Shown one piece after another: positions 12,778 to 28,510 of a stretch of DNA of 37,068 nucleotides (positions are counted from its first letter, which is position 1; each line of letters opens with the position of its first letter). The stretch comes from Roseovarius bejariae (lineage in GTDB: Bacteria; Pseudomonadota; Alphaproteobacteria; Rhodobacterales; Rhodobacteraceae). The position numbers were made by a program, and so were the translations under genes. A model generated the notes under the pieces. It saw only the letters and a program-made list of their open reading frames with translations. It had not been told where the DNA came from and did no database searches. The DNA lies in assembly GCF_009669325.1 (NCBI RefSeq), contig NZ_SZWE01000003.1:1-37068 (forward strand), in the 5' to 3' direction.

Positions 12778-12882
12778 CCTAACAAGCGCTGCAGCGCGAC
12801 AAACAGAGATGAGGTCGCGTCAGATCCCATCGTCGCCACAAAAGTGATCACAGCGCTTCTTAAAATGAAGAAAAGAAGAGGA

Positions 12883-12929
12883 CGTCAGGGCCTTGTGATA
12901 CAATCCGGCCCCCTACCGGAATCTACCCC
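12883..12929 (-). repeat. Tn3-family transposon inverted repeat, right
   Basis: Reverse complement of the left end, with three mismatches in 47 bases. The outer end at 12929 is CCCC and is followed by the target duplication ACTGA. Confidence 0.9.
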
Positions 12930-12985
12930 ACTGACGTAAGCTACGATTTGTTGTCTGCTGATCTTCGACAAAAAGGAGATCAGAG

Positions 12986-13279: not shown

Positions 13280-13287
13280 GGCGCAAG

Positions 13288-13341
13288 ATGGTCGAGCCTG
13301 CCAATACCAACCTGTCGATTGGTAAACAGTGCAAGCTGACA
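13288..13341 (+). pseudogene. IS3-family orfB, 5' remnant
   Basis: The frame starting MVEPANTNLSIGKQCKL is the standard beginning of an IS3-type OrfB (DDE integrase subunit). It is broken after about 17 codons, where the 19-bp Tn3 end remnant begins; the catalytic DDE region is absent from the window. Confidence 0.75.
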
Positions 13342-13360
13342 CCCTACCGGAATCTACCCC
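13342..13360 (-). repeat. 19-bp remnant of a Tn3 transposon end
   Basis: CCCTACCGGAATCTACCCC is identical to the outer 19 bases of the right inverted repeat at 12911-12929 and in the same orientation. It marks the exact left edge of the biosynthetic cluster segment, and suggests that a second copy of the transposon, or a one-ended event, took part in joining the cluster to the IS. Confidence 0.8.
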
Positions 13361-13399: not shown

Positions 13400-13840
13400 C
13401 TAGCGCTGGTACTTGATGAAGGGCGTCACGGTCGCGATGCGGTCATAGAGCTTGCGCGCCGTTTCGTTGAAATCCTGCGTCATCCAGTAAACGCTTGGGG
13501 TACCATTGGCATCCGCCGCGTCATAGACCGCTTCGATCAGCGCGCGGCCCGCGCCCGTGCTTCGCACCTTCGGATCGACATAGAGATCCTGAATGTAACA
13601 CACGTCTTCGACGCGCCAGTTGTGGGCGTGATAGACCACGTGGACCAAGCCGATCACCTCGCCGCCGGTCTCGGCGACAAAGGCGCATTGCTGCGGCCGC
13701 TCCGAATCCAAAAGCCGTTCGAACGTCGTGTCATACACCTCGTCGGGGACCGACGATCCGTAAAACTCTAGGTAGCCGGTCCAAAGCTCGCGCCAGCGGG
13801 CGTGATCCTCGCGACGGAGCGGACGCGTTGTTGCTGTCAT
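13400..13840 (-). CDS. GNAT-family N-acetyltransferase
   Basis: A 146-residue protein with a single GNAT fold: the long strand before motif A (VCYIQDLYVDPKVRSTGAGRALIEAVY) contains the RxxGxG acetyl-CoA pyrophosphate loop as RSTGAG, and FNETARKLYDRI forms the family-typical C-terminal helix. It resembles the small Hpa2-like acetyltransferases of amino groups. It is the last gene of the twelve-gene minus-strand operon, 24 bases after the FAD oxidase gene. It may acetylate the pathway product or an intermediate such as a diaminobutyrate or hydrazine nitrogen, for biosynthesis or self-protection; the substrate is inference. Confidence 0.85.
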   Translation of the reverse strand: MTATTRPLRREDHARWRELWTGYLEFYGSSVPDEVYDTTFERLLDSERPQQCAFVAETGGEVIGLVHVVYHAHNWRVEDVCYIQDLYVDPKVRSTGAGRALIEAVYDAADANGTPSVYWMTQDFNETARKLYDRIATVTPFIKYQR

Positions 13841-13864
13841 TGTGCAATCCTCGTTTATGTCGGT

Positions 13865-14863
13865 TCAGGCTGCTAAGAGCCCGGAGACCATTCGGCACAC
13901 ATCGGTAGCGACCAATGGCGCGTATTTGAAGCCTCCGCCGTTGTCGGAAGTGACGACAAGGCATCGGCCGTGACGACGAAGGCGCCGCGTGCCGTCGACT
14001 GCGGTCCAGGCATTCGTCGCCACCCGGCCCCGGTACAGGAATTCGTAGACCGGGTGGATCGCGACGTAGGCATCGGCCAAAGCTTTCCGCACCTCGTCCG
14101 CATCCGGGCCCGGCCGGCCGGCCGAATGGCTCAGGGCACCACAGCCGAATTTCGCCGGATAGCCCCTTAGCGCCGACATACCCCACATGTCACGGCCGCC
14201 CAGATCGGCCCAAGCCACAGCAGGCACCTCGGGCGCATCCGGCGGGGCATAGACCACGTGGCAGCGCCATGAGCGGACCGGCCCCAGACCGAATTGGTCC
14301 GCAAATCCGGCCAACCCCGGCCCGGCGGCCAGAACGACCGCGTCAAACCGCTCTTGCCCCGCGCCGTCGATCCGAACCGTGCCGCTTTGCGCGTCGATCC
14401 GTGTCACCGCCGCGCGTGGCATCAACCGCACGTCGCGAGAGACCAGCCAACGGACAAGCGCGGTCTGGATTTCGGCGGCCATGAGAACGCCGAACGTCGG
14501 AAACAGCCGCCGCATCGCGAACCGGTCACTGCCCGGCAACCGGTCGGACGGCGCGGCTGCCGCACCGTGCCCGACCGGACCCGGGCCGGCCACCAGGACT
14601 CCGGTTTCCTCGAACCCGTCACAGTCTACCTCGGACAGAAGGTCACGCCAAAGCGCCAGTGCGCGGGCGACTTCCGGCGCCATGTCACCGTTCTGCCACG
14701 GGTGTATCAACCGGTGCGCGCCGTGCGAGGCGTTGGCGGTGTTGGGGATGTCGTCGGCATCACAGAGCGTGACCCGCGCCCCCGCGCGGGTCAGCATGAA
14801 TGCCGACAACAGGCCGTTGATCCCCGCACCGGCAACAAGCACGTTCAAGACCGGCACCGGCAC
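13865..14863 (-). CDS. FAD-dependent amine/D-amino-acid oxidase (DAO family)
   Basis: A 332-residue flavoprotein. The Rossmann fingerprint VAGAGINGLLSAF lies at residues 10-22 (G12, G14, G17), and the C-terminal DAO-type glycine-rich segment SDNGGGFKYAPL lies near the end. In hydrazine pathways such as s56-p1 (Spb36) and triacsin, a glycine-oxidase-like member of this family oxidises the N-N-linked dipeptide-like intermediate and releases the smaller hydrazino acid. It starts four bases after the upstream N-hydroxylase stop, so the two are co-translated. The family is certain; the substrate is inferred from the operon. Confidence 0.85.
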   Translation of the reverse strand: MPVPVLNVLVAGAGINGLLSAFMLTRAGARVTLCDADDIPNTANASHGAHRLIHPWQNGDMAPEVARALALWRDLLSEVDCDGFEETGVLVAGPGPVGHGAAAAPSDRLPGSDRFAMRRLFPTFGVLMAAEIQTALVRWLVSRDVRLMPRAAVTRIDAQSGTVRIDGAGQERFDAVVLAAGPGLAGFADQFGLGPVRSWRCHVVYAPPDAPEVPAVAWADLGGRDMWGMSALRGYPAKFGCGALSHSAGRPGPDADEVRKALADAYVAIHPVYEFLYRGRVATNAWTAVDGTRRLRRHGRCLVVTSDNGGGFKYAPLVATDVCRMVSGLLAA

Positions 14864-14867
14864 GCGC

Positions 14868-16187
14868 CTAACCGACCTCGGCAGGTTGCCTGACCGCCGG
14901 AGCGGCGCGGATCTCGGGCGCCATCATGTCCTCAAGGATCCAGCCGGACCGATCGGCAAGCAGGCTGAAGCTCTGCGCGTCGCTGATCCCGTGCGAATGC
15001 TCGCACTGCCCGTTCAGGTAAATCTCCGCGCCCATGCTCGGTTTGGTGGCAACCTTGTAGGCGCGGCTCACGACGGGCATGCCGTCGGCGTCAAGCTCGA
15101 TATGTTCGGCCAGGTCCCCCAACGGCCCCGCCATCGGATCGACCCGGAACCCGGTCGCGATCACCACCAGGTCAAAGCTCAGCGACTTGCCCTCGCCGGT
15201 ATGCGGATCGCGGAGCGACAGCACCACATTCTGACCTTCGACATCCACGGCGGTGACGTGCGTGCGTTTTTCCATGAAGATGCGCGGGCGGCCTTCGACC
15301 TCGTCGAGATACATCGTGTTGTACAGTTCCGAGCTGCCGTCGGCATCGAGCCCGGCATAGTTCGTCTGCCAGGACTCGGCCAGGATCGCCTTGCGTGCTT
15401 CACGCGGCAAGCCGTGCACGTAGTCGGTCTCGGCCGGCGAATAGACTTCCGAGGAAAAGTTGCTCAGGTCATTCAGCCGGAATCCGTGCGAACGATGCAC
15501 GCAGTGCACATCCGATTCGGGAAAGCGCGTCCGGAAATCCAATGCGATCTCACCGGCGCTCATCCCAGATCCGATCACCGCCACCCTGCGCACCGTCGAC
15601 GGATCGGCGATGGCGTTCACGCGTGTGGCGAATTCCCCGGTATGGAACACCCGCGCGCCCAGATGCGGGCGATAGATTTCGGGGATGTTGGGCCGCGCCC
15701 CGGTCGACAGGACCAGCCGGCCGGCCTCGATCTCTTCGCCGGTCGATGTCCGCGCACGGATGCGGGTCCATTTTCCGTCAACCTCGGCCGACGGAGTCAA
15801 TGCGGTCACGGCGGTACCGAAAGACGTGTTGCCCGCCAACAGCTCCCCGGCCCAGGCGACATAGTCGGACCATTCGATCCGGTTCACCGGGCGTCCGGTC
15901 AGACCGAAAGAATACAGCCGCCCCTTTTTCTTGAGATAGTTCGCGAAGGAATAGAAGCTGCGGGGGTTCCGCGGTGTCACCAGGTCGCGCAGCGCACTGT
16001 GATTGATATCGGCATGGCGGAACAGCAATTCGCCCTGCCAGCGGCAATCCGAGCCGGCCTCCAGGAACCGGAAACTGCCGACGGGCGACGTTCCGGTGGC
16101 TTCGATGTGGTCTTCGATCGCGGCTGCAAAGCTGATCCCTGCAGGACCGAAGCCGATGCCTAGCAGATCGACGGAAGTGTATGTCAT
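14868..16187 (-). CDS. SidA/IucD-type amino-acid N-hydroxylase, copy 1
   Basis: A 439-residue flavin N-monooxygenase. The FAD motif GIGFGPAG is at ~10-17, DLVTPRNPRSFYSFANYL at ~68-85, the NADPH motif GSGMSAGE at 206-213, and the ATGF motif (VVIATGF) near residue 350. Family members hydroxylate the side-chain amine of lysine, ornithine or a diamine. FGPAG replaces the FGPSN seen in copy 2 and in classic SidA/IucD, so the substrate may differ. The start overlaps the stop of the EamA gene by ATGA. In the hydrazine pathways, N-hydroxylation creates the electrophilic nitrogen for N-N coupling. Which of the two copies feeds that step cannot be told from sequence. Confidence 0.87.
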   Translation of the reverse strand: MTYTSVDLLGIGFGPAGISFAAAIEDHIEATGTSPVGSFRFLEAGSDCRWQGELLFRHADINHSALRDLVTPRNPRSFYSFANYLKKKGRLYSFGLTGRPVNRIEWSDYVAWAGELLAGNTSFGTAVTALTPSAEVDGKWTRIRARTSTGEEIEAGRLVLSTGARPNIPEIYRPHLGARVFHTGEFATRVNAIADPSTVRRVAVIGSGMSAGEIALDFRTRFPESDVHCVHRSHGFRLNDLSNFSSEVYSPAETDYVHGLPREARKAILAESWQTNYAGLDADGSSELYNTMYLDEVEGRPRIFMEKRTHVTAVDVEGQNVVLSLRDPHTGEGKSLSFDLVVIATGFRVDPMAGPLGDLAEHIELDADGMPVVSRAYKVATKPSMGAEIYLNGQCEHSHGISDAQSFSLLADRSGWILEDMMAPEIRAAPAVRQPAEVG

Positions 16188-17116
16188 TTGGCTATCCTCG
16201 TATTCGCTGGCTGTCGGTGCGCGCGCGACGACACGAAGACCGACATTATGATGAGACCGGCGCCAAGCAGCTTGGCCGCGCTCAGCAGCTCTCCGATCAG
16301 GACGGCCGCGACGGCGAGCGTGACGACCGGTTCGAAGTTCAGGGTCATGGAGGTGGGCGTGCTGCCGATGCTTCGGATGCTGCGGAACTGGAACAGGATG
16401 CCGATTCCGAAGAGCGCGCCGACGGCGGCCATCGTCACCAGCCCGATCGCGGCCTGCCCCGGTTCGAATACCGGCAAATGCGCGTCGCCCGATGCGGTCC
16501 AAAGCGCCAGCCCCAACACTGACGCCAACAGGTTGCCGGCCAGCCCCAGCCCGAAAACCGAAGCGGTGGCCATGCAGCGTTGCGCCAGCACGATGGATGC
16601 CGCCATGGCCATAGCGGCCAGAAGCGCCAGCCCCACTCCCTTCGGATCGGGCATGCCGACGGTGCCCGGCCCGGTCGCGATGGCGATACCGGCCAAGGCC
16701 AGAACCGGCGCCAGAAACATGCGGTACCCTGCCCGCACCCGCCCGGTCAGCATGTCGTGCAAGGTCACGAAGAGCGGGAAGGTAAAGAACAGGATCACCG
16801 TCATGCCGACCGAAATGTACTGTACCGCCCCGAGCTGGCAGAAGGCCGTCGCGACCAACGCCAGCGCCAGCCCGGCAAGGTGAAGCGGTCGGATCCGCCC
16901 AAGCGACAGGGACTGGCCGCCGATTACGGCCAGCCCGAAACAGATCACCGCCACGATGACGCCGCGCGATATGACCAGGTGTTCGACCTCGAGCCCCGCC
17001 GCATAGGACAGCGACGCGAAAGTCGTGATGCTGCCGTAGCAAACGGCGCTCAGCAGGGCGAACACGTAGCCTGCGCGTGGAAGCACCGCGGCGGGATCGG
17101 TGGAAACGTCGCTCAT
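16184..17116 (-). CDS. EamA/DMT-family membrane transporter, copy 1
   Basis: 310 residues with about ten hydrophobic helices in two repeated halves, the EamA drug/metabolite transporter build (for example GYVFALLSAVCYGSITTFAS at the start and TLNFEPVVTLAVAAVLIGE in the second half, a classic EamA signature). It is an inner-membrane exporter. It lies inside the biosynthetic operon, 20 bases after the NTF2-like gene, and overlaps the N-hydroxylase start, so it probably exports the product or an intermediate. It is only distantly like the second EamA protein at 23062. Confidence 0.88.
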   Translation of the reverse strand: MSDVSTDPAAVLPRAGYVFALLSAVCYGSITTFASLSYAAGLEVEHLVISRGVIVAVICFGLAVIGGQSLSLGRIRPLHLAGLALALVATAFCQLGAVQYISVGMTVILFFTFPLFVTLHDMLTGRVRAGYRMFLAPVLALAGIAIATGPGTVGMPDPKGVGLALLAAMAMAASIVLAQRCMATASVFGLGLAGNLLASVLGLALWTASGDAHLPVFEPGQAAIGLVTMAAVGALFGIGILFQFRSIRSIGSTPTSMTLNFEPVVTLAVAAVLIGELLSAAKLLGAGLIIMSVFVSSRAHRQPANTRIAK

Positions 17117-17136
17117 GGCGGACCCTCGTTATGAAA

Positions 17137-17601
17137 TCACTCGTAGGTGATGGGGAATTCGGGCATTGTCCAGCCGCGCTCGGCATAAGGGAAGCCGCCG
17201 AGTTCGTTGCTGCCCAGGCTGTCGTCGCGGGGCGCCGCGTAGTAGCCGCGAACCTCGGTGATCTTTCCTTCGTCGTTGAAGGTGAACCAGTCGACACCGC
17301 GATACATCTTGTTGCGGCCGGGCTTCATCGCCGTCCATTCGGCAACCGCCGTCTTGCGCTCCGGGTCGCCGAACACCGTCTCGATGTGCCAATGCGAGTT
17401 GATCTGTTCGCCCTCGCTTTTCCACAGCTCGATCAGCGGCTCGACGCCGTGGACGGGGCCGAACATGCCGCCGGGCAAGTAGTTCACTACGTCCTTGTCG
17501 AAGACGTTGCGAATACCGCTTTCGTCGCGCGAATTGCAGGCGTTGAAGTAATCCAGAACGGCGCATTCCAGCGCGTTGTGGTCTGGGATCTTGTCAATCA
17601 T
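17137..17601 (-). CDS. NTF2/SnoaL-like protein
   Basis: 154 residues with the alpha+beta cone pattern of SnoaL-like NTF2-fold proteins: the N-terminal helices ALECAVLDYFNACNSRDESG, then FDKDVVNYLPGGMFGPVHG and strand-rich YRGVDWFTFNDEGKITEVRG. Family members include isomerases, cyclases and dehydratases of natural-product pathways. A GGAGA Shine-Dalgarno lies within the end of the PhzF gene, and the start overlaps its stop by eight bases. The reaction is unknown; it is likely a tailoring or cyclisation step. Confidence 0.75.
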   Translation of the reverse strand: MIDKIPDHNALECAVLDYFNACNSRDESGIRNVFDKDVVNYLPGGMFGPVHGVEPLIELWKSEGEQINSHWHIETVFGDPERKTAVAEWTAMKPGRNKMYRGVDWFTFNDEGKITEVRGYYAAPRDDSLGSNELGGFPYAERGWTMPEFPITYE

Positions 17602-18535
17602 GAGGTGTCTCCTTGGTTTTTATGATCAGGGAAGGTGCCAGGACGGGACAGGTGACACCGCGGATCGCGGTTATGGTCCGTCCGGAAAGGGTCGGCGGGG
17701 ACGGGGGGGCCAGACGCACCCGCATCCGCCCGGGGCGCTTGGCGCCTCCGTTCTGGAGGAACGTGAAACTCTGCGCCTGCCCGCCGGACAAGAGCGCGGC
17801 AAGGGCACCGGCGCAGGACCCGCAAACCGGGTCTTCGTAGATGCCCTCGGCGGGGGCGAAGCTGCGCAGCTCCGCGTCGACGCCGGCCCGGCGTGACCGC
17901 ACGAACGGTACCAGACCGACCGACTTGCTCGCGCGGCTCCACTCGGCGATGGCCGGGTGGTCGGGGCGCACGTCGCCCAAGGCCGTATCCGCGCGCAGCC
18001 CGACCAGCAGCCAACGAACGCCCGTCGCGACCAGGTGCGGCGGCTCGGGCGTCAAAGCCTCGACCGGAAGCCCCAGCATCGCGGCGATCTCACTCGGCGT
18101 CCGCGGCGCGGGCTTGTCGAAACGCGGGGCCGGCAAGGCCACGCGCCAGTCGCCGCCCGGCCGGTCACGAACCATTTCCGTCTGCCCCAGCCCGTCGGCC
18201 TGGATCAGGTCCAGCGCGTCCGAGCCGGTCTCTTCCGCGAAAGCATGCACTGCGGCCAGTGCCGGATGGCCGGCAAAGGGGATTTCCCGCCGCGCGGTGA
18301 AAATCCTCGCGCGGTAGTCGGCGCCTTTCGTCGGCGCGAGAATGAACACCGTTTCGGACAGGTTGACTGCGCTTGCGATGGCCTGCATCGCGGCCGCGCT
18401 CAACCCGTCACCGCCGAACACCACCATCGCCGGGTTGCCGCTGCGCGGGCCGTCGCAGAACACGTCGATCTGCCGAAGGCTCAGCTCGGGATGGCGCGCA
18501 ATGATCTGCGGCAGGTCCGACAATGCCAGGGTCAT
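17594..18535 (-). CDS. PhzF-family isomerase/epimerase
   Basis: 313 residues. The PhzF fold is shown by the N-terminal IDVFCDGPRSGNPAMVVFGG, the catalytic-type glutamate in NLSETVFIL (E61), FAGHPALAA, and the C-terminal EDPVCGSCAGAL, the counterpart of EDPATGSA. Family members catalyse proton-shift isomerisations on small amino-acid-derived substrates. I chose the ATG at 18535, which overlaps the MetRS-like stop by ATGA; the frame is open far upstream, but that part is a shadow of the MetRS-like gene. Its role here, perhaps isomerising a hydrazone/imine-type intermediate, is inference. Confidence 0.88.
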   Translation of the reverse strand: MTLALSDLPQIIARHPELSLRQIDVFCDGPRSGNPAMVVFGGDGLSAAAMQAIASAVNLSETVFILAPTKGADYRARIFTARREIPFAGHPALAAVHAFAEETGSDALDLIQADGLGQTEMVRDRPGGDWRVALPAPRFDKPAPRTPSEIAAMLGLPVEALTPEPPHLVATGVRWLLVGLRADTALGDVRPDHPAIAEWSRASKSVGLVPFVRSRRAGVDAELRSFAPAEGIYEDPVCGSCAGALAALLSGGQAQSFTFLQNGGAKRPGRMRVRLAPPSPPTLSGRTITAIRGVTCPVLAPSLIIKTKETPHD

Positions 18536-20022
18536 GCGACTTCGGCGCTCCGCTCGGGCCAAGCCAAGGGACCGTTCTGACCGCATGCCGCCCACAAGCG
18601 CGCCGCCGTGTCCGGCATGATCGGGGCCATCCCGACGGCCAGCGCCGCAGCGATCTCGGTTCGCCGGGGACCGTCGCTTGCCAGCGCAAAGTCGAGTCCG
18701 TTGGCGATGGTCTGGGCCACGGTCCGCAGGCTGAAATGCTCGGGCTGGTAGGCCGAGGCAAACCGGTCCAGAACCGCGCCCGCCTCGCGCGATCCCGGAT
18801 CGACCGCACCCGTGACGGGCAGATCGGCAAAGAGGGCAGCGAACGGGCGGCGCAGTTTCTTGTCCACGACTTTTTCGAAATCGGCGACGGTGAAATTGGC
18901 CTGATTGTATTCGGGGTTGGACCAGGCCAGATAAAACCGCAGCTCGTCGCGATCGGCCTCGGCCAGCATGTCGCGCGCCCAGATCAGGTGCCCTTGGCTG
19001 GTCGAGAACTTGAAGTTCTCCATCAGGTAAAACTCGTTCGTCACGAACGCGTCCGGCAAGAGATGGTCCATCCCCGCGCGCCGGGCCGCCAACGCCAGGG
19101 CAAGTTGCGCGACACAGTAAAAGAACGAATTGTCGAACCCTAGGAACTGGACGTAGCTTGTCGCGCCGTCGTCCTTGAGCATGCCGCCGTCGCGGCCGTG
19201 CGCCTGCGACAGCCAGTAATAGTGCCCCGGCACCATTTCCGCCCAGACGTTGATGACAGAGCCTTCGGCGCCGGGAAACGGCGCGGCCTGCCCCCAATCG
19301 GAGTTGAACGTCACCGGAAAATCCGGCAGCGGACGCGCGAACAGCTCGCCGATCAGCCGGCGCAGCATCGGGCGGCGTTCCGGGATGTGCCGTGTCAGAT
19401 GCTCCCAGAGCATATCACGGTAGTTTTCCAGCGGCAGGACGTATTCGGTGATCTCGCGCGTTTCTAACGCGTCGCCGGCCATGCCCCCGGTCGGGTAGAG
19501 CCCGAACAGATCGAGGGCGTCATTGGGGTGACCGCAGGCTTCGCAAATATTGCCGTTCGTGCCCGCCAGGCACGTCGGGCACCGCCCCGATGCATAGGAT
19601 TCGAACAGGAACCGTTGACGCTCGGGATCAAAGGGCACCGCGCGCGTCTGTTTTTCCAGCGCGCCGCTTGCGTACAGATCCTTGAACCAGTCGCTGACAT
19701 AGGAGCCGTAATCGGCGTCGGGCATCCCCACGACATCGAACTCGATCCCCGACATGCCGAGCGTTTTCGATATCTCGTCATGCGAGCGGCGCGCCAGGGT
19801 GATCGGATCGGTTCTCAGCCGTTCCGCGGTGGTCACCACGTAGCTTTGGTTCAGGTCCACGCTGAGGGCGCAGACCGCGGTCTGTCCGCGCAGCTTGAGG
19901 TACCGCCGCAGCACGTCCGCCCCGAAATACGGTCCGGCGATATGGCCGACATGGAGGTCGCCATTGGGGGTCGGCGGCGGGGCCACGATGGCGTAGCGGC
20001 CGGCAAAAGTGGTATCTAGCAT
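18532..20022 (-). CDS. Methionyl-tRNA-synthetase-like protein, putative hydrazine-forming partner
   Basis: A 496-residue class I aminoacyl-tRNA synthetase homologue closest in build to MetRS. The HIGH motif is HVGH (24-27) within PPPTPNGDLHVGHIAGPYFG. A zinc knuckle is seen at C148/C151 and C160/C163. The KMSKS loop is altered to KFSTS (338-342), and a helical domain follows (~380-490). Housekeeping MetRS genes do not sit in such operons. In the s56-p1 (Spb40), triacsin and pyrazofurin pathways a cupin-MetRS fusion couples an N-hydroxylated amino acid to another amino acid to make an N-N bond. Here the cupin is a separate gene 26 bases upstream. The altered KMSKS and the operon argue for the amino-acid-activating, N-N-forming role over tRNA charging. 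Confidence 0.82.
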   Translation of the reverse strand: MLDTTFAGRYAIVAPPPTPNGDLHVGHIAGPYFGADVLRRYLKLRGQTAVCALSVDLNQSYVVTTAERLRTDPITLARRSHDEISKTLGMSGIEFDVVGMPDADYGSYVSDWFKDLYASGALEKQTRAVPFDPERQRFLFESYASGRCPTCLAGTNGNICEACGHPNDALDLFGLYPTGGMAGDALETREITEYVLPLENYRDMLWEHLTRHIPERRPMLRRLIGELFARPLPDFPVTFNSDWGQAAPFPGAEGSVINVWAEMVPGHYYWLSQAHGRDGGMLKDDGATSYVQFLGFDNSFFYCVAQLALALAARRAGMDHLLPDAFVTNEFYLMENFKFSTSQGHLIWARDMLAEADRDELRFYLAWSNPEYNQANFTVADFEKVVDKKLRRPFAALFADLPVTGAVDPGSREAGAVLDRFASAYQPEHFSLRTVAQTIANGLDFALASDGPRRTEIAAALAVGMAPIMPDTAARLWAACGQNGPLAWPERSAEVA

Positions 20023-20048
20023 CGTTCGGTTTCCTGATAGCTCGGGTG

Positions 20049-20468
20049 TCAGTTCCGGGACGCAAGGTACGCGTCCTTGCTCCGGCCCTGATCGTCCCAG
20101 TAGATGTCGATGAAGGTCAGCGGCTCGGTGCCGGGATTTGCCATCCGGTGATGCCAGTAGCGCGGCACGTACCCGACATCGCCCGGATGCAGCAGCGTCG
20201 ATTGCCCCTCCATCTCGAAACGCGCCGTGCCCGCGATCACGATAAAGGTTTCTTCCTCGTCGTGATCGTGATCGTCGGCATCGGTCATCGGGTCGACAGT
20301 GACCCAGACGGCACCGAATTCGCTGACCGGACGCTTGGTGTCGGCAACCCCGGCCCACGGGTACAACCGCCGCAGGTGGCAATTGTATTCGAAGCTCGTC
20401 GTCGCATCGGACTTGCGCTGAACGAATGTCTCGATATCGAAATCCGTGGTCGGCAGCAGATCATACAT
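20049..20468 (-). CDS. Stand-alone cupin, putative hydrazine synthetase subunit
   Basis: A 139-residue single cupin domain. Motif 1 gives metal ligands H67, H69 and E73 in DDHDHDEEETFIVIAG, and motif 2 gives H107 in GDVGYVPRYWHHRMAN, with tyrosine in place of the usual glycine. In known hydrazine synthetases the cupin half holds a metal ion and rearranges the activated N-hydroxylamine ester to the N-N product; there it is fused to MetRS. Here it is encoded just before the MetRS-like gene and overlaps the N-hydroxylase stop by eight bases, so hydroxylase, cupin and MetRS are made in the order in which they would act. The cupin fold is certain; the activity is inferred. Confidence 0.84.
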   Translation of the reverse strand: MYDLLPTTDFDIETFVQRKSDATTSFEYNCHLRRLYPWAGVADTKRPVSEFGAVWVTVDPMTDADDHDHDEEETFIVIAGTARFEMEGQSTLLHPGDVGYVPRYWHHRMANPGTEPLTFIDIYWDDQGRSKDAYLASRN

Positions 20469-21813
20469 TGGTCAGTTCCTCGGGCTGCGGGACGGTGGGC
20501 GCACCCGCCTCGGCAATGTGATCGACAAGGGCGCGTGCGATCTGTTCCGACCGCACCGACAAGAGGCTGAAAGAGCCCGCGTCGCCGAACCCGTGCGTCG
20601 TTTCGCAAAGGCCGTTGATGAAGACCGGAGCGGTCGCCGCCCCCGGAAGCGTCGCCACGCGGTAGTCGCGGGCGATCGCGATGCCGCCATCGGCCCGCGT
20701 CTCGAAACGCGTCGCCAGACCGTCCAGCAACGGGTGATACGGCTCTTGGTTCTCGGCGTTGCCGAAGTTGCGGAACCCGGTCGCCAGCACGATGCCGTCC
20801 ACCTCGAGCGTCCGGGGGGCGCCGCTCAAACGGTCGGTCACGGACATCGCGTAGGCGTCGCCGCGCTTTTCCACTCCGGCGATTTCGCAGTTGTGCACGA
20901 TCTCGATGCTGTCGCCGTTCCGCACCCGCTGCTCGTACAGCTTGAAGTTCAGCGCCTCGATCACGTCCGGATCGGCCGCGCCGTAGTTGCTGCGCCACAG
21001 CTCGCGGGTGATCTTGTGCTGGCTGCCCTCGCCTGCGTCAAAGAACATGTCGACGAAGCTGGGATAATAGATCTGTTCGGTGAAGGCACTCAGGTCCTTC
21101 TGCTTGAAGCCGAAGCCGCGCGAGATGCCTGTCAGGCGGGCCCGCCCGGCAAGATCCAGCAGGATCTCGATCGCACTCTGGCTGCCGCCGACGACAGCAA
21201 CGCGCGGCATGTCCAGACGGCCGAGCCAGCGGTCGCGGGCAAAGCGGTAGCCCGACAGGTGCACAATGTCGTCACCGAGCGCACTTTCGAATTGCGCCGG
21301 GATGTAATTCGACCGGCCCGGCGCGAAGCTGACGCTCCGCGCCAGCAGGCGGCGCCCGTCATCCAGCAAAACCGCAACCAGCGGCGTGCCCGACATGTCG
21401 GAGGTGTATGTCATCGCGACGACACGCGTGTTCAGCGAAACGTAGTCCAGGAACTGGCGACCCACCCAATTGACATAACCGGCATATTCCGTGCGCGGCG
21501 GATAGGGAGCGGACAGGTTGAGGTAGTCGAACAACCGACCCTGCGCCTTGAGGTAGGCAAGAAAGCCGTAGGGGCTGGCGGGATTGCGCGGCGTGACAAG
21601 GTCGCGCAACGGGTTGTGCTGGATGTCGGCCCCGTCCAGCAGCATACCGGGATGCCAGAGGATGTCGTCCTGCGCCTCCAGGAACAGGCAGTTGTCCAAC
21701 GCCCCGACTTCGCCTAAGGCGATCGCGAGGGCCATGTTCGACGGCCCGAAGCCGACGCCGATGCAGTCATAGATATGCGCCTCGGCGTGTCGCATGTGGC
21801 TCATGTTGGTCAT
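20461..21813 (-). CDS. SidA/IucD-type amino-acid N-hydroxylase, copy 2
   Basis: A 450-residue flavin N-monooxygenase with the FAD motif GVGFGPSN (19-26), DLVTPRNPASPYGFLAYL, the NADPH motif VVGGSQSAIE, and LATGFRNF near the end. This set matches classic lysine/ornithine N-hydroxylases more closely than copy 1 does. It overlaps the EctB-like stop by ATGA and the cupin start by eight bases. Placed between a diaminobutyrate-forming aminotransferase and the cupin/MetRS pair, it is the best candidate to hydroxylate the diamine nitrogen ahead of N-N coupling. The substrate could equally be lysine, as in s56-p1. Confidence 0.89.
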   Translation of the reverse strand: MTNMSHMRHAEAHIYDCIGVGFGPSNMALAIALGEVGALDNCLFLEAQDDILWHPGMLLDGADIQHNPLRDLVTPRNPASPYGFLAYLKAQGRLFDYLNLSAPYPPRTEYAGYVNWVGRQFLDYVSLNTRVVAMTYTSDMSGTPLVAVLLDDGRRLLARSVSFAPGRSNYIPAQFESALGDDIVHLSGYRFARDRWLGRLDMPRVAVVGGSQSAIEILLDLAGRARLTGISRGFGFKQKDLSAFTEQIYYPSFVDMFFDAGEGSQHKITRELWRSNYGAADPDVIEALNFKLYEQRVRNGDSIEIVHNCEIAGVEKRGDAYAMSVTDRLSGAPRTLEVDGIVLATGFRNFGNAENQEPYHPLLDGLATRFETRADGGIAIARDYRVATLPGAATAPVFINGLCETTHGFGDAGSFSLLSVRSEQIARALVDHIAEAGAPTVPQPEELTNV

Positions 21814-23057
21814 GCCGGTTCCTCCGTCTTGGAAAGTGTGGTGGCAAGCGCATCGGCCAGGATGTCGATCCCCTCGGCCAGTTCGTCACGCGTCAGCGTC
21901 AGCGCGGGCAAAAGCTTGATCACCTCGTCATGCGGCCCGCAGGTTTCGAGGATCAGCCCCGCCTTGAAGCAGGCCAGCTGGACGCGGCGCGCGGCGACCG
22001 GATCGTCGAAACGCAGCCCCTGCATGAAACCGCGCCCCCGGGTCGACAACCCGTGCGTTTCGGCCAGCCGCTTCAGCCGCCCGGCGATGAACAGCGCGTT
22101 TTCCTTGACCGTCTTGGCAAAGCCGAGGTCGGCCCAGAAATGGTCCAGCGCTGCCGTCGCAGTGACAAAGGCGTGGCTGTTGCCCCGGAACGTGCCGTTG
22201 TGCTCTCCGGGCAGCCACAAGTCGAATTCGCGCCGGAACAACACCATCGACATCGGCAGGCCGAAGCCCGACAGCGACTTGGCCAACGTCACGATATCCG
22301 GCGTGATCCGCAGCGCTTCGAAAGAAAAGAAGTCCCCGCTCCGACCGCACCCGGCCTGGATGTCGTCGACGATCAGTAGCGCGCCGTGCTTGCGGGCGAT
22401 CTCGGCGATGCGACGGGTCCAGCGCGGTGTCGCCATGTTCAGACCGCCTTCGCCCTGGATGGCCTCCAGAACGATTGCGGCCGGTGCCTCCAGCCCGCCG
22501 GACGGGTCCGACAGCATCTTGTCCAGCATCTCGGCGGTGCAGATGTCCGGTCCATAATAGCCGTCATAGGGCGCGCGGGTGACGCCGCTCAGCAGAGTTC
22601 CGGACTGGCCGCGATGATGCCCGCTGCCTGTCAACGCCAACGCACCCAGCGTGCAACCGTGAAACCCGTTGGTAAAGGCGATCACCTCGTTGCGGCCGGT
22701 GACCTTGCGGGCCAGCTTGATTGCCGCCTCGATGGCATTCGCGCCGGTGGGTCCGGGGAGCTGCACCACGTAGTCCAGCCTCCGCGGCTTGAGGATATGC
22801 GTCTCGAACGCCGTCAGGAAGTCGCGCTTGCGGTCGCTTTTCAGGTCCAGCGACATGGCAAGCCCGTCATCCGCGATATGCGACGTCAACGCCTGCTTCA
22901 GAACCGGGTGATTGTGCCCGTAGTTCAGCGATCCGCAGCAGGCCAGGAAATCGCGGTAGTGGCGGCCGTCGGTGGTGGTCATCGTTCCGCCCCGGCCGGT
23001 GGAGAATTCCACGTCGAAGGTACGGCAATACGACCGGACTTCGGATTCGAGTGTCAT
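21810..23057 (-). CDS. EctB-like diaminobutyrate-2-oxoglutarate aminotransferase
   Basis: A 415-residue class III PLP aminotransferase. The start ESEVRSYCRTF and LNYGHNHPVLKQAL are EctB-like. The PLP pocket shows D231 in LLIVDDIQAGCGRSGDFF and the Schiff-base lysine K260 in VTLAKSLSGFG. EctB makes L-2,4-diaminobutyrate from aspartate semialdehyde for ectoine, but no EctA or EctC is present, so the diamine is probably a building block here. I chose the ATG at 23057 because GGAG lies nine bases upstream; an ATG at 23078 would add seven residues. A 4-base gap separates it from the EamA gene. Confidence 0.86.
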   Translation of the reverse strand: MTLESEVRSYCRTFDVEFSTGRGGTMTTTDGRHYRDFLACCGSLNYGHNHPVLKQALTSHIADDGLAMSLDLKSDRKRDFLTAFETHILKPRRLDYVVQLPGPTGANAIEAAIKLARKVTGRNEVIAFTNGFHGCTLGALALTGSGHHRGQSGTLLSGVTRAPYDGYYGPDICTAEMLDKMLSDPSGGLEAPAAIVLEAIQGEGGLNMATPRWTRRIAEIARKHGALLIVDDIQAGCGRSGDFFSFEALRITPDIVTLAKSLSGFGLPMSMVLFRREFDLWLPGEHNGTFRGNSHAFVTATAALDHFWADLGFAKTVKENALFIAGRLKRLAETHGLSTRGRGFMQGLRFDDPVAARRVQLACFKAGLILETCGPHDEVIKLLPALTLTRDELAEGIDILADALATTLSKTEEPA

Positions 23058-23061
23058 GGTG

Positions 23062-24021
23062 TCAACTCCGAGGGTCAAAGGGTTTCGGTCGGACCGGCGG
23101 CGGCGCAGCGGCGGCCCGGCCCCGCATCGGCGTCGGCAGGTAGGTCGAGCCGAGTTCGCACAACAGCACGCCGGCGATGATCAGCAGTGTCATTGCACCC
23201 TGGAACAGCGTCGGCTGTTCGCCGAGCACCAGGAAAGCAAGCGTCACGCCGAAGACCGGGATCAGGTTAAGAAAGATGCTCGCCTCGACCGCCGAGGTCT
23301 GGGCGATGCCCCAGTTGTACAAAAAGTACCCGCCGAACGTGACGAACGTGGCCAGGTACAGCACGGCGATTGCGCCGGATGCCGGAATGTCTGTGCTCAG
23401 CGGTTCGCCGAAGAAGATCAGCGGGAAAAACAGCACCACACCGGCAAAGGCCTGCAAGGCGGTCAGCAGAAAGGGACTGTAGCGGTCCGACATCTTCTTG
23501 AGCAGGATCACGTAGACACCCGACGCGGCCATCGCGCCCAGCTCCAGCAGGTTGCCCAGCCACGGCATCGGCGCATACTCGGTTCCGGTCGATCCCAAGC
23601 TCAGCCCGACGGCACCGAGGATGCAGACGGCAAAGCCGGAAAGCGTCCAGAACCGGGGATATTCGCGCAGGATGACCCAGGCCAGCAGGGCCACGATAGG
23701 CGGCTGTAAGGCATTGATCGTCGCCGCCGCACCCGCGGTCGTCAGCCGCAGCGCCTGGCTTTCGAGGAAGAAATAGATCCCCGGTTCGCACAGCGCCATG
23801 ATCAGCAGATAGACCCAGTCGCCGGACCTGTATTCGAACCGGCCCCAGAACCTGTAGAGCACTAGGAAACCGATCGCCGCGATCAGCATTCGGAAAAAGA
23901 TGATCTTTCCCGGATCAAGAACCAGAACGGCCTGTTTCATCGCAATAAAGGAGCTGCCCCAGAAGAAGACCGCGCAGACAAGCGCGATCTTGGGGAGCAG
24001 ATGCGACTGCCCGGCGCTCAC
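23062..24021 (-). CDS. EamA/DMT-family membrane transporter, copy 2
   Basis: 319 residues with ten predicted hydrophobic helices in two EamA repeats. FFWGSSFIAMKQAVL near the N-terminus and FLNLIPVFGVTLAFLVLGEQ in the second half are clear family signatures. It overlaps the upstream hydroxylase stop by ATGA. Two unrelated-looking EamA exporters in one operon suggest export of two compounds, or export plus self-protection from a reactive hydrazine-type product. The C-terminus is proline- and arginine-rich and cytosolic. Confidence 0.88.
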   Translation of the reverse strand: MSAGQSHLLPKIALVCAVFFWGSSFIAMKQAVLVLDPGKIIFFRMLIAAIGFLVLYRFWGRFEYRSGDWVYLLIMALCEPGIYFFLESQALRLTTAGAAATINALQPPIVALLAWVILREYPRFWTLSGFAVCILGAVGLSLGSTGTEYAPMPWLGNLLELGAMAASGVYVILLKKMSDRYSPFLLTALQAFAGVVLFFPLIFFGEPLSTDIPASGAIAVLYLATFVTFGGYFLYNWGIAQTSAVEASIFLNLIPVFGVTLAFLVLGEQPTLFQGAMTLLIIAGVLLCELGSTYLPTPMRGRAAAAPPPVRPKPFDPRS

Positions 24022-25082
24022 AGCATCACCCGGATATTTTCGCGATCGCGCAGATCGAAATTCACCCGCCGGCCGTTGGCGATATTGACGCGCCGCATCC
24101 AGCGGTGCTTGGGGCCGTAATCCGGCTTGTAGATCGAGCGTCCGTGCGCCACGCGCAGGTTGTCCAGCAAAACGATCTCGCCCGGTTCCAGGTGCAGCGA
24201 CACCGACACGCGGTCTAGCTCCGCATGCATCGCGTTCAGCGCCGCGTCCGCCTCGTCATCGCCGTCCAGGGCCGAAACGAAGGCCTGATCGACGCACATC
24301 ATCGGCATGTCGCGACGACCGTAGATCAACGGGACCGGCTGCGAATCGTCGATCATCTGCTGGATCAGCTTGAAGGCGTCGGCGTTCAGCTTCCATTGCT
24401 CGCTCTCGTTTTCCACCGGCGTATGCGACTTGTCGGGCAAGATGATGAAACGCGGCTGACGCAGGATATCCACCGTTTCGGGCGGCAGGTCGAAATCGTC
24501 GATGCACGAGATATTGGTCGTCGCCTTTTCGCGGTTGCGATAGCACATCAGGGTGAAGAAATCCGCGCGGCCGCGGTGGAACGCCTCTTCCGTGTGCCAC
24601 ATCAGCGTCGTTGCACTGCTGCCGCCAAGTTGTTCGTCCTTGACCGACTCGATCGGAACGATGTGGCGCAGGAAACGTCCGTTTTCCTGGGTCCGCCATC
24701 CGAAGACACCGCCGACGGCGCTGGACAGCAAGAGCTGAAAGAACTCTTCGCGCAGGTACGGGCGATTGTCCCAAGGCTGATCCCAATGTTGCGGCGACGG
24801 GCCGATCGCGGCGTCATCGATGTCAAAACCGCGCACCACGAGATAGCCGCACGGCACCTCGCCGCTGGCGATCAGCTTGAGCAGTCCCAACAGGTTTTGC
24901 GGAAGTCGCGCGGCCATCAATTCGCAGGCAAAGGCCGCCTCGCTGCTTTCGACGGAATCGAATTGAGAAACCAATTCCGACAGCAGATCCTCGATGTCGC
25001 TCTTTTCGCGCTCCGACAAATTGTAGATCAGATCATCGGGCAGGAGCGGAGCAGAAACAAAGTCGCGGTATTCGAGAGTCAT
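24018..25082 (-). CDS. Fe(II)/2-oxoglutarate hydroxylase, clavaminate-synthase-like
   Basis: A 354-residue TauD/clavaminate-synthase-like dioxygenase. Iron ligands are H163 and E165 in MWHTEEAFHRGRADFFTLMC and H313 in LLDNLRVAHGRSIY; R327 or R330 in KHRWMRRV binds 2-oxoglutarate. The closest known relatives are free-amino-acid C-hydroxylases acting on arginine, asparagine or lysine. It is the first gene of the operon, so it may act early on a free amino acid, or on the final product. The ATG at 25082 faces the MocR regulator across about 166 bp. The longer open frame upstream overlaps the promoter region and lacks a better start. Confidence 0.86.
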   Translation of the reverse strand: MTLEYRDFVSAPLLPDDLIYNLSEREKSDIEDLLSELVSQFDSVESSEAAFACELMAARLPQNLLGLLKLIASGEVPCGYLVVRGFDIDDAAIGPSPQHWDQPWDNRPYLREEFFQLLLSSAVGGVFGWRTQENGRFLRHIVPIESVKDEQLGGSSATTLMWHTEEAFHRGRADFFTLMCYRNREKATTNISCIDDFDLPPETVDILRQPRFIILPDKSHTPVENESEQWKLNADAFKLIQQMIDDSQPVPLIYGRRDMPMMCVDQAFVSALDGDDEADAALNAMHAELDRVSVSLHLEPGEIVLLDNLRVAHGRSIYKPDYGPKHRWMRRVNIANGRRVNFDLRDRENIRVML

Positions 25083-25248
25083 GGCATCCGTCCAAGCAGT
25101 TAATGGTCTGGGCGAAAAAAAGTCAAAATCGCTCTGCATGAAAAGGGACGCTTGCAATTTAAAAGGGTGCACTGTACTGCTGAAACGCATGATACGCGTA
25201 GGTTTTATCTCGTATTACCAATTTGTTAGATTGTTTGAGCGGAAAACC
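25083..25248. promoter_or_regulatory. Divergent control region between the biosynthetic operon and the MocR gene
   Basis: This AT-richer stretch of 166 bp must hold both promoters. TACGCGTA at 25193-25200 is a perfect 8-bp palindrome, and GTGCAC is found at 25167-25172. On the minus strand, TTGACT followed after 16 bases by ATTAAC is a weak promoter-like pair just upstream of the hydroxylase gene. MocR proteins usually bind between divergent genes, so its operator should be here. Confidence 0.5.
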
Positions 25249-26640
25249 GTGCAACGCAAACCAAGCATTAAATCAATCGTCGAATCCTTTGCTGCGGACA
25301 TCGAAAACGGACACTGGGCGGCCAATGCGAAACTGCCGTCACTCCGAAAGCTGGCCGAAGATCGGAAAATCTCCAAGTCGTCCGCGGTCGAGATTTACGA
25401 AAGACTCCTGGCACTCGAATTGATCGAAGTGCGCGGCAATCAGGGCTTTTTCGTCAAACAGCGCAGCGCCAAACCCGATACCCCGCATCCGGTGCCGAAA
25501 ACCGTGACACCCGCCGACCCTCCTGACCGGCGCGGCCGTTTTCCGACGAAAGGATTTCACCCCAGCGGCGGCTGGCTGGGCAGCCATACATTGCCGCTCG
25601 AAGCGCTGCGGTTCGCCTTGCGGGAAACGGCACGCGCCAAGACGGACGAGCTGCTGAATTACACAGATCCGCGCGGTTTTCTGCCGTTGCGGAAACTTCT
25701 TGTCGATCGCTTTGCCACCCTCGGCATCAAGAGCCGCAGCGAATCTGTTCTGATCACCGATTCCGCTAGCATGGCAATCGACATGATCTGCCGCCTGATG
25801 CTGTCCCCCGGCGACACGGTCTTCGTGGACGATCCGACATCGCTGAATTTCACCAGCATGATCAAACTCTACGGCGTGAAAGTGGTCGGCGTGCCGTTCG
25901 CCGGAACCGAGCGCGACCTCGAAGCGCTGCGGCGTCTGGTTTCTGCGCACCGGCCGAAACTCTACCTTCTTAGTCCGGTCCTGCATAACCCGACCGGGTC
26001 CAGCATCACGACAAACCAGGCTTTCGACCTGCTGGTCCTAATGCGCGAAGCCGGGGTCTATGTCGTCGAGGACGACGTCTATGCCGATCTCGACGAGAAC
26101 GCGACGACACGACTGTCTGCATTGTCGGGCCAGGCCGGCCTCGCCTATATCGGCAGTTTCTCCAAGACGATATCGCCCAGTCTGCGTTGCGGATTCATTT
26201 CGTGCGAACCGCACATCGCCAAACAGCTTGCCGAACGGTTCGCGGCAGCGAGTTTCGGGCTGAACACCCTGACGTCGATCACCACTTACAAGCTGCTCAA
26301 CAGCGGACTTTACCGGCGCAACCTCCGATCGCTGCAAAAGACGGTCGCCGACGAACGCAAAACGGCGGTGAACCGTCTGGAGAGCATCGGTTTCGAAGTG
26401 CCTTACAAACCCAAGGGCGGCGTCTTTGTCTGGGCCCGGTGGCCCGGCCCGGCCTCTGCCCGGCTGATTTCCGACGTCGCGCTGGAAAGCGGTGTCGTGC
26501 TGGCGCCGGGCGAATCCTTCAGCCCGTCCGCGCGGTTCGGCGACCATATCCGGTTCAATTGCACGCTGATGCAGACCGGCGGCCTGTACCCGCGGCTAAA
26601 GCAGATACTGAAAGACGCCGATAAAAGGGCGCGGGCCTGA
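25249..26640 (+). CDS. MocR-type regulator (GntR helix-turn-helix plus aminotransferase-like domain)
   Basis: 463 residues from the GTG at 25249, which begins the protein where MocR proteins normally begin; ATGs at 25138 and 25189 would add an unusual N-terminal tail. Residues ~5-70 form a GntR winged helix (KLPSLRKLAEDRKISKSSAV). Residues ~100-463 form a fold-type I aminotransferase-like domain with NPTG (248-251), EDDVYADL (274-281) and the PLP lysine K306 in IGSFSKTISP. Such proteins sense amino-acid-like ligands through PLP; EnuR of ectoine metabolism responds to a diaminobutyrate derivative. It is divergent from the operon and is the likely pathway-specific regulator. Confidence 0.87.
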   Translation: MQRKPSIKSIVESFAADIENGHWAANAKLPSLRKLAEDRKISKSSAVEIYERLLALELIEVRGNQGFFVKQRSAKPDTPHPVPKTVTPADPPDRRGRFPTKGFHPSGGWLGSHTLPLEALRFALRETARAKTDELLNYTDPRGFLPLRKLLVDRFATLGIKSRSESVLITDSASMAIDMICRLMLSPGDTVFVDDPTSLNFTSMIKLYGVKVVGVPFAGTERDLEALRRLVSAHRPKLYLLSPVLHNPTGSSITTNQAFDLLVLMREAGVYVVEDDVYADLDENATTRLSALSGQAGLAYIGSFSKTISPSLRCGFISCEPHIAKQLAERFAAASFGLNTLTSITTYKLLNSGLYRRNLRSLQKTVADERKTAVNRLESIGFEVPYKPKGGVFVWARWPGPASARLISDVALESGVVLAPGESFSPSARFGDHIRFNCTLMQTGGLYPRLKQILKDADKRARA

Positions 26641-27668: not shown

Positions 27669-27669
27669 C

Positions 27670-28506: not shown

Positions 28507-28510
28507 CACC

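What the first reader, a model, noticed from the sequence alone, without database searches (positions are those of the whole stretch)
13400..26640. Plasmid-borne cluster with the parts list of an N-N bond (hydrazine) pathway
One minus-strand operon encodes two SidA/IucD-type N-hydroxylases, a cupin, a MetRS-like protein and a glycine-oxidase-like flavoenzyme. In the s56-p1, triacsin and pyrazofurin pathways these functions hydroxylate an amino acid nitrogen, couple it to a second amino acid and release a hydrazino acid. The added EctB-like aminotransferase, Fe/2-oxoglutarate hydroxylase, PhzF, NTF2-like protein, GNAT and two exporters match no cluster I know. I infer a new hydrazine-, hydrazone- or N-N-heterocycle-type product, on a mobilisable replicon.
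Basis: partly seen in the sequence, partly recalled or inferred. Interest (0 to 1): 0.95.

Follow-up and report, generated by a model that had tools for sequence, protein, structure and literature searches.

The report
Plasmid operon for nitrogen–nitrogen bond making
A small bacterial plasmid carries a twelve-gene operon that likely joins an N-hydroxylated diaminobutyrate to a second amino acid through a rare nitrogen–nitrogen bond and is predicted to modify and export the result; five of the twelve genes found no counterpart in the 33 related loci compared, so its product may well be new.

Summary
Twelve tightly packed minus-strand genes (13400-25082), with a divergent MocR-type regulator, sit on a closed 36.9-kb plasmid of a Rhodobacteraceae-group bacterium. 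The MetRS-like protein separates from tRNA-charging MetRS (100/100), lacks the anticodon residues, and its model's best PDB match is the PyrN hydrazine-synthetase domain. The cupin aligns with the N-N-forming cupin RHS1 at all four essential positions (His for Asp63, as in PyrN). A cupin-MetRS-NMO-EctB block recurs in Agrobacterium vitis, Puniceibacterium, Paenibacillus and Corallococcus llansteffanensis, the strain of the reported synthetase Cor1-Cor2. Corrections: the substrate is probably 2,4-diaminobutyrate (actinopyridazinone-like), not lysine; NMO1's clade has an acidic residue where nearly all other NMOs compared have Asn, and the window's EctB has another ancestry than its relatives', as if DABA supply had been recruited or replaced separately. 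EctB, PhzF and GNAT are not unprecedented. Unmatched in the 33 relatives (within the DNA held) are the second N-hydroxylase, the VioC/GntD-like hydroxylase, the NTF2 protein and these EamA exporters. No reaction or product has been shown. New variant of a known kind.

The parts
13400..13840 (-). GNAT acyltransferase (inferred hydrazine/amine acylation, protection or self-resistance)
   Evidence: PF00583 63.7 bits; phmmer 5.8e-33 to the GNAT of a Pantoea plasmid hydrazine-synthetase cluster (L073)
13865..14863 (-). DAO-family flavo-oxidase (inferred C-N cleavage of the hydrazine intermediate)
   Evidence: PF01266 92.3 bits; 34% identical to the DAO beside the Puniceibacterium cupin
14868..16187 (-). 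NMO2: second SidA/IucD-type flavin N-hydroxylase, substrate unknown
   Evidence: PF13434 252.8 bits; own five-row clade with Ser at the SidA Asn293 position
16184..17116 (-). EamA exporter 2
   Evidence: PF00892 77.1 bits
17137..17601 (-). NTF2/SnoaL-like protein
   Evidence: PF12680 53.0 bits
17594..18535 (-). PhzF-family isomerase
   Evidence: PF02567 171.5 bits; homologues in the Agrobacterium vitis and Puniceibacterium clusters
18532..20022 (-). MetRS-like ligase half of a predicted split hydrazine synthetase
   Evidence: PF09334; best PDB match PyrN domain 9l8v; tree and residues
20049..20468 (-). zinc-cupin half of a predicted split hydrazine synthetase (H67, H69, E73, H107)
   Evidence: aligned to RHS1 D63/H65/E69/H103
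20461..21804 (-). NMO1: flavin N-hydroxylase, inferred N4-hydroxylation of L-DABA
   Evidence: PF13434 267.4 bits; in the 20-row clade that holds the six EctB-linked NMOs, all with Asp/Glu at the SidA Asn293 position
21810..23057 (-). EctB: diaminobutyrate-2-oxoglutarate transaminase
   Evidence: TIGR02407 555.6 bits, above the 552.2 cut-off; groups with ectoine-pathway EctBs
23062..24021 (-). EamA exporter 1
   Evidence: PF00892 163.8 bits
24018..25082 (-). VioC/GntD/clavaminate-synthase-like Fe(II)/2-oxoglutarate hydroxylase
   Evidence: GntD model 313.6 bits (cut-off 345), VioC model 280 (cut-off 418.6); start from 354-aa orthologues
25189..26640 (+). divergent MocR-type (GntR + aminotransferase domain) regulator, inferred to control the operon
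   Evidence: PF00392 and PF00155

Best explanation
This plasmid operon encodes a predicted split hydrazine synthetase (a stand-alone cupin and a MetRS-like ligase) that would likely join N4-hydroxy-L-2,4-diaminobutyrate to a second amino acid through an N-N bond. Proposed steps, all inferred from homology: EctB makes L-DABA; NMO1 hydroxylates its side-chain nitrogen; the MetRS-like protein adenylates amino acid X and passes it to the hydroxylamine oxygen; the zinc cupin rearranges the ester to a hydrazine; the DAO cleaves one C-N bond to free a terminal hydrazine; GNAT acylates it. PhzF, NTF2, the Fe/2OG hydroxylase and NMO2 then tailor it (isomerisation/cyclisation, C-hydroxylation, a second N-oxidation), and EamA proteins export it under a MocR regulator. 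Shown here: gene content, operon layout, the split from tRNA MetRS, the metal residues, the conserved neighbourhood and the separate ancestry of EctB. Not shown: any catalysis, the identity of X, the order of tailoring, the product.
For: MetRS: 207.8 bits against a 553-bit MetRS cut-off. In a 73-row tree the 16 canonical MetRS rows, the genome's own chromosomal MetRS (28% identical) among them, split with 100/100 support from the other 57: window, 23 homologues, 31 loci and two unplaced paralogues, L057 and L064. Met-pocket residues differ and the anticodon residues N391/R395/P460/W461 are missing. PyrN C-terminal domain complexes (9l8v) are Foldseek ranks 1-3 (best E 1.1e-28, TM 0.82). Cupin: positions of RHS1 H65, E69 and H103 are His/Glu/His in 30 of 30 cupins compared, RHS1 included; the Ala variants of D63, H65, E69 and H103 of RHS1 were all inactive (PMC8664883, passages). 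Five of 28 cupin ORFs found are fused to the MetRS-like protein. Neighbourhood: an NMO place in 33 of 33 loci, EctB in 5 of 33, PhzF in 3 of 33. Corallococcus llansteffanensis CA051B (L009, MetRS 46% identical) is the strain of the reported Cor1-Cor2 synthetase (PMC11705231, section 15); its genome shows one such MetRS besides the canonical one and a weaker 888-aa synthetase hit. DABA: Apy11/Apy9 use N4-hydroxy-DABA; the window EctB groups with ectoine EctBs (99/99), apart from the relatives' EctBs, so the transaminase was recruited or replaced separately; NMO1 and 19 clade mates carry Asp/Glu where 44 of 45 other rows outside the NMO2 clade carry Asn.
Against: No reaction or metabolite was observed. 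NMO1 sits on a long branch (at most 44% identical to any row), so its substrate may have moved away from DABA. The acidic residue is a correlation; no DABA hydroxylase sequence (Apy11, Por9) was at hand, and the label 'next to EctB' needed 6 changes on the NMO tree, 87 of 500 shuffles being as low, because most clade mates are proteins without known context. In PyrN two of the metal-residue variants kept activity (H50A about 82%, H90A about 27%). The DAO is only 25-34% identical to DAOs of related clusters (43% over 70 residues in L036). In the cupin model search the validated 5UQP was not among the 50 rows shown; structural-genomics cupins 4mv2 and 4rd7 came first, though the sequence profile does find 5UQP (E 8e-14). 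The MetRS model is weak (pLDDT under 50) at 331-347, where KFSTS lies. The host chromosome has its own ectoine synthase and an EctB, so DABA is made there anyway. The adenylation proteins of the relatives L004, L005 and L007 are absent here (read from ORFs).
Confidence: 0.72

Rival explanations
1. A hydrazine pathway built on another amine: NMO1 or NMO2 hydroxylates lysine, ornithine or an Fe/2OG-hydroxylated basic amino acid, and EctB serves a side role (for example DABA as the partner amino acid).
For: NMO1 is strongly diverged; NMO2's best solved relative is annotated L-lysine 6-monooxygenase (5cqf, 326 bits); the Fe/2OG enzyme is nearest to arginine/enduracididine hydroxylase models; Apy9 itself is reported to accept several hydroxylamines.
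Against: NMO1 lies in the 20-row clade that holds the EctB-linked NMOs and shares its acidic residue; an EctB of separate ancestry stands next to this NMO type.
Confidence: 0.2
2. A hydroxamate siderophore cluster: the N-hydroxylases make hydroxamates and the MetRS-like protein is incidental.
For: Two SidA/IucD/PvdA-family enzymes, a GNAT and exporters.
Against: No IucA/IucC match in the genome; none of the twelve operon genes is an NRPS or an uptake receptor (NRPS elsewhere in the genome was not searched); the antiSMASH metallophore rule excludes ornithine NMOs that occur with a MetRS-like gene as hydrazine pathways (PMC12971057, passages).
Confidence: 0.04
3. The MetRS-like protein is a spare tRNA-charging MetRS (self-resistance) inside an unrelated amino-acid-modifying operon.
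For: It belongs to Pfam tRNA-synt_1g and keeps an aaRS fold.
Against: Tree split 100/100, anticodon residues lost, Met pocket changed; adjacent or fused to cupins across phyla.
Confidence: 0.02

Closest known systems
Actinopyridazinone pathway (Apy9 hydrazine synthetase, Apy11 DABA N-hydroxylase, Apy10 oxidase; Streptomyces)
   Same: Same logic by gene type: DABA, N4-hydroxylation, coupling to an amino acid, cleavage by an FAD-dependent oxidoreductase (as described in PMC11705231, section 15).
Corallococcus llansteffanensis CA051B locus (L009), very probably Cor1-Cor2
   Same: Separate cupin (43%) and MetRS-like (46%) with NMO (39%) and EctB (46%) close by.
   Different: PhzF match only 29%, and no Fe/2OG, NTF2 or second NMO in the DNA held; gene order differs.
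Agrobacterium vitis (L004) and Puniceibacterium sediminis (L005) clusters, product unknown to me
   Same: Cupin-MetRS (58-59%)-NMO-EctB-PhzF block, plus DAO in L005.
   Different: They carry an adenylation protein, alpha/beta hydrolase and rhodanese (read from ORFs) that the window lacks; the window adds Fe/2OG, NMO2, NTF2 and its EamA proteins (L004 has another transporter of this general look, by reading).
RHS1 + MetRS-like pair of Rhodococcus and PyrN (pyrazomycin)
   Same: Split architecture (RHS1) and the same metal/catalytic positions; PyrN domain is the top structural match.
   Different: Those use N6-hydroxy-Lys + Glu; the Arg at the pocket position of the Rhodococcus enzyme is Tyr in the window; beside it lies a saccharopine-dehydrogenase-like gene (L087), not a DAO.
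Spb38-Spb40 / Tri26-Tri28 (s56-p1, triacsin; Lys + Gly)
   Same: NMO, cupin/MetRS, DAO set (PMC11705231).
   Different: Lysine-based didomain enzymes; the window's are separate and EctB-linked. Their sequences were not compared.

Membership tests
Cupin/MetRS-like hydrazine synthetase | MetRS-like class-I ligase with HxGH and KxSxS ATP motifs, distinct from tRNA-charging MetRS | tested here: met
   HVGH and KFSTS present; 100/100 split from 16 canonical rows; N391/R395/P460/W461 missing
Cupin/MetRS-like hydrazine synthetase | Zinc-cupin with the metal residues and the invariant catalytic Glu | tested here: met
   H67/H69/E73/H107 align with RHS1 D63/H65/E69/H103
Cupin/MetRS-like hydrazine synthetase | Cupin and MetRS fused or adjacent, with an N-hydroxylase | tested here: met
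   Adjacent (26 nt gap) with NMO1 next door
Cupin/MetRS-like hydrazine synthetase | ATP-dependent N-N bond formation | not testable with these tools
   needs enzyme assay
DABA-type (actinopyridazinone-like) hydrazine pathway | DABA transaminase in the operon | tested here: met
   EctB equivalog above cut-off
DABA-type (actinopyridazinone-like) hydrazine pathway | N-hydroxylase specific for DABA | tested here: inconclusive
   Clade and acidic signature fit, no validated DABA-NMO sequence to compare
DABA-type (actinopyridazinone-like) hydrazine pathway | Sequence kinship to Apy9/Apy10/Apy11 | not tested
   sequences not held in what was fetched
PyrN/RHS Lys+Glu type | Glu-type MetRS pocket (Arg at E. 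coli position 301, as in the Rhodococcus enzyme) | tested here: not met
   Tyr in the window; that this Arg binds Glu is my inference
tRNA-charging MetRS | Anticodon-binding residues and Met pocket | tested here: not met
VioC/GntD arginine or enduracididine beta-hydroxylase | Score above the curated equivalog cut-off | tested here: not met
   GntD 313.6 of 345, VioC 280 of 418.6; it works like one at family level only
NIS hydroxamate siderophore cluster | IucA/IucC synthetase | tested here: not met
   0 matches in the genome; the control rang in 2 of 14 genomes
Ectoine cluster | EctA and EctC beside EctB | tested here: not met
   The genome's only ectoine synthase match is on C1, not on the plasmid; window GNAT 17.8 bits against the EctA cut-off of 120.6

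The most novel reading that the evidence does not exclude
The operon makes an unprecedented, doubly N-oxidised and C-hydroxylated DABA-derived N-N compound (for example an N-hydroxy or azoxy pyridazine, or an N-oxidised hydrazine akin to the hydrazinoacetic-acid-to-nitramine route): NMO2, whose clade has a unique Ser in the substrate pocket, would oxidise the hydrazine itself and not a free amino acid, making it a new kind of hydrazine-oxidising flavoenzyme.
Probability: 0.25. Interest if true: 0.82.

Novelty: new variant of a known kind. Interest (0 to 1): 0.62.

Why it matters
N-N bonds are rare in biology and sought after in drug chemistry. This is a compact hydrazine-synthetase operon on a small Gram-negative plasmid with a relaxase gene, with no NRPS or PKS gene among its twelve, so it could be moved whole into a laboratory host. 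It adds two oxidative enzymes (NMO2, Fe/2OG hydroxylase) that none of the 33 related loci shows, and it gives testable sequence marks for which hydroxylamine (acidic residue in NMO1's clade) and which amino acid (MetRS pocket) a pathway uses.

Tried and rejected
Fe/2OG (CAS) context: no plasmid match at 60% identity or more among 52 matching records and 1 of 394 family genomes, the window's own. NMO2: 4 of 394 family genomes at E <= 1e-60, the window's own and three only 34-40% identical. MetRS at E <= 1e-60: 2 of 390 order, 2 of 385 class and 2 of 394 family genomes, the window's own included each time (samples overlap). 187 Escherichia plasmids matching MetRS looked like a find; of the 20 rows spread over the ranking 12 are Escherichia, 22.2-23.5% identical, 10 of them annotated metG, so ordinary. 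Amino acid X could not be named: the eight-residue code that the review credits to Matsuda 2024 is not in the text I read. Genome-contig scan: one allowed, used on A1 (24 rows, 23 of the 120 listed hits); it answered 80 stretches, 33 of them confirmed, so distant clusters are missed, and flanks end at 10 kb or the contig end. Siderophore and spare-MetRS readings were rejected (see rivals). DNA near-identity of the cluster: 2 plasmid records, both over EctB stretches. Searches for prior print; none of the titles and abstract starts listed describes this cluster.
Full report
What is there. The window is contig C3 of a 3.50-Mb, three-contig genome. A genome of the same family group is Puniceibacterium sediminis (G388 and L005 both lie on a 74,927-base contig), so the host belongs to the Rhodobacteraceae of GTDB (family name recalled; Paracoccaceae in the taxonomy printed); its genus is not named by the tools. 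Bases 1-127 repeat at 36942-37068, so the plasmid reads as a 36,941-bp circle with RepA, ParA-like and relaxase genes. The operon runs from 25082 down to 13400: Fe/2OG hydroxylase, EamA1, EctB, NMO1, cupin, MetRS-like, PhzF, NTF2, EamA2, NMO2, DAO, GNAT. Neighbours overlap by up to 8 nt or lie at most 26 nt apart. A MocR-type regulator diverges at 25189. The stretch 13400-26640 has 63.6% G+C, against 60.8% (1-13300) and 57.9% (28300-37068).

The MetRS-like protein is not a tRNA synthetase. It scores 207.8 bits where the MetRS model needs 553. The genome has a separate chromosomal MetRS, 28% identical. In a tree of 73 rows, 16 canonical sequences separate with 100/100 support from the other 57: the window, 23 homologues, 31 loci and two PF09334 paralogues of unknown role, L057 and L064 (three rows dropped beforehand; the program warns of long branches, L064 and L009 among them). 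By E. coli numbering (initiator Met not counted; roles of these residues recalled), the window has P12, P13, T15, M256, V257, H260, N297 and Y301 and lacks N391, R395, P460 and W461. The AlphaFold model (mean pLDDT 82.7, under 50 at 331-347) matches PyrN C-terminal domain complexes first (9l8v, E 1.1e-28, TM 0.82), ahead of Pyrococcus MetRS (E 3.5e-26, TM 0.78), a modest margin. By sequence 9l8v and 9vq4 lead with 171 bits each, against 129.8 for the Pyrococcus and about 65 for the E. coli MetRS chains.

The cupin is of the N-N-forming kind. L087 carries WP_007299751, the protein named RHS1 in PMC8664883 (passages). Its Asp63, His65, Glu69 and His103, whose Ala variants were all inactive in that paper, align with window H67, H69, E73 and H107. 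Across 30 cupins (window, 28 loci, RHS1) the last three are invariant and the first is His in 28 and Asp in 2; PyrN has His there too. In PyrN, H50A and H90A kept about 82% and 27% activity, E56A none. Section 12 of the paper states that all cupins it studied have the invariant Glu. The cupin model is fair (pLDDT 83.8); its nearest folds are 4mv2 and 4rd7, and RHS1's own entry 5UQP is not among the 50 rows shown, though the sequence profile finds it (E 8e-14).

Neighbourhood. A scan of GTDB contigs gave 33 loci. tblastn found an NMO place in 33 of 33 and a cupin in 28 of 33. EctB lies close in 5 of 33 (L004, L005, L007, L008, L009) and PhzF in 3 (L004, L005, and L009 at 29%). DAO was found in 14 of 33 at E 1e-4. 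Cupin and MetRS are one ORF in five loci (L026, L030, L032, L033, L035), a fusion argument that they work together. The Fe/2OG, NTF2 and EamA proteins had no match in the ORFs of the 33 loci or of L072/L073 at E 1e-3, and each of the 33 shows one NMO place only; L004 6929-7978 looks by reading like another drug/metabolite-type transporter. The loci hold at most 10 kb on each side, so a gene farther off would be missed. A weak GNAT match occurs in L004, L005, L007, L008 and L026 and a strong one in the Pantoea plasmid L073. Corallococcus llansteffanensis CA051B (L009) is the strain listed for the reported synthetase Cor1-Cor2 (PMC11705231, section 15); its genome has one such MetRS besides the canonical one and a weaker 888-aa hit, so L009 is very probably that pair.

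Which substrate. The review (section 15) describes actinopyridazinone: Apy11 makes N4-hydroxy-DABA, Apy9 couples it to Ala, Apy10 cleaves. Here EctB scores above the ectoine_ectB cut-off. In a 13-row tree it falls with alphaproteobacterial EctBs, at least two of them beside ectoine synthase genes, with 99/99 support, apart from the EctBs of the other hydrazine clusters (at least two changes forced; 51 of 500 shuffles as low). So a DABA transaminase was put next to this cassette, or replaced there, more than once, which I read as a sign that DABA is the building block. NMO1 lies in a 20-row clade (SH-aLRT 99) with the NMOs of L004-L009, five of which stand near an EctB (quick tree, NMO1 on a long branch; counted as a label, 'next to EctB' needs 6 changes, 87 of 500 shuffles as low, most clade mates having no known context). 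At the position of SidA Asn293, whose change to Ala weakens ornithine binding (PMC7347517, passages), those 20 rows have Asp or Glu, the five NMO2-type rows have Ser, and 44 of the other 45 have Asn (Gln in P0318). Both window NMOs have Arg for SidA Lys107. Positions were mapped through the printed PvdA alignments, the PvdA-SidA correspondence being recalled. The Arg at pocket position 301 of the Rhodococcus enzyme, reported to use Glu, is Tyr in the window, so X is probably not Glu (inference).

Mechanism proposed (inferred beyond gene content): EctB gives DABA; NMO1 gives N4-hydroxy-DABA; MetRS-like makes the aminoacyl ester with X; cupin rearranges it to the hydrazine (mechanism as in PMC8664883); DAO frees a terminal hydrazine; GNAT acylates it, as DobB succinylates hydrazinoacetic acid in PMC13061610 (passages). 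NMO2 could oxidise the hydrazine further; PMC13274452 (passages) reports hydrazinoacetic acid as precursor of a nitramine in Streptomyces noursei, the final oxidation enzymes being called unresolved. PhzF and NTF2 may isomerise or cyclise; the Fe/2OG enzyme may hydroxylate DABA or a basic amino acid. The NMO2 type recurs: P0233 (60% identical) and MetRS homologue P0022 (56%) both come from a contig of 12,679 bases (that it is one contig is inferred; the same length test pairs the A. vitis and Puniceibacterium proteins that L004 and L005 show side by side).

Mobility. Tn3-type ends (19 nt) lie at 3840(+), 12911(-) and 13342(-), none in 100 shuffles. The first two bound a unit with transposase, resolvase and relaxase genes, and the third copy ends 40 bp from the operon's GNAT end. 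A truncated Tn3 transposase and a resolvase flank the right side (27200-28209). A 2.3-kb replication stretch is about 81% identical to Roseivivax plasmids.

Judgement. A hydrazine-synthetase operon with a strong sequence case, a probable DABA substrate and an unmatched set of tailoring enzymes. The product remains unknown.

Noticed in passing
window 1-127 and 36942-37068: Identical ends: the contig is a closed circle counted with a 127-nt overlap.
   Followed up: yes
window 3840-13360: Three Tn3-type terminal repeats; the unit 3840-12929 carries transposase, resolvase and a relaxase gene, and the third end lies 40 bp from the operon.
   Followed up: partly
window 27200-28209: Truncated Tn3 transposase (DUF4158 part only) and a resolvase-like ORF on the other side of the operon.
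   Followed up: partly
L072 (Klebsiella variicola pBM374-1) and L073 (Pantoea agglomerans): Enterobacterial plasmids carry NMO-cupin-MetRS (L072) or cupin-MetRS-oxidoreductase-MFS-ATP-grasp-GNAT (L073) hydrazine-type clusters.
   Followed up: partly
L088 (Leisingera sp. S132 plasmid): NMO and cupin genes beside an unannotated MetRS-like stretch that matches in two pieces, apparently broken; left as it is.
   Followed up: no
PDB 4mv2 (plu4264) and 4rd7: Two cupins named without a function match the hydrazine-synthetase cupin profile best (E 1.9e-40 and 8.4e-46); they may be N-N-forming cupins.
   Followed up: no
L024 and L034: NMO and cupin read as one ORF, a fusion of N-hydroxylase to cupin that differs from the known cupin-MetRS fusion.
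   Followed up: no
L087 893-3671: In the RHS1 cluster of Rhodococcus a lysine 2,3-aminomutase and a luciferase-like monooxygenase stand beside the synthetase genes.
   Followed up: no
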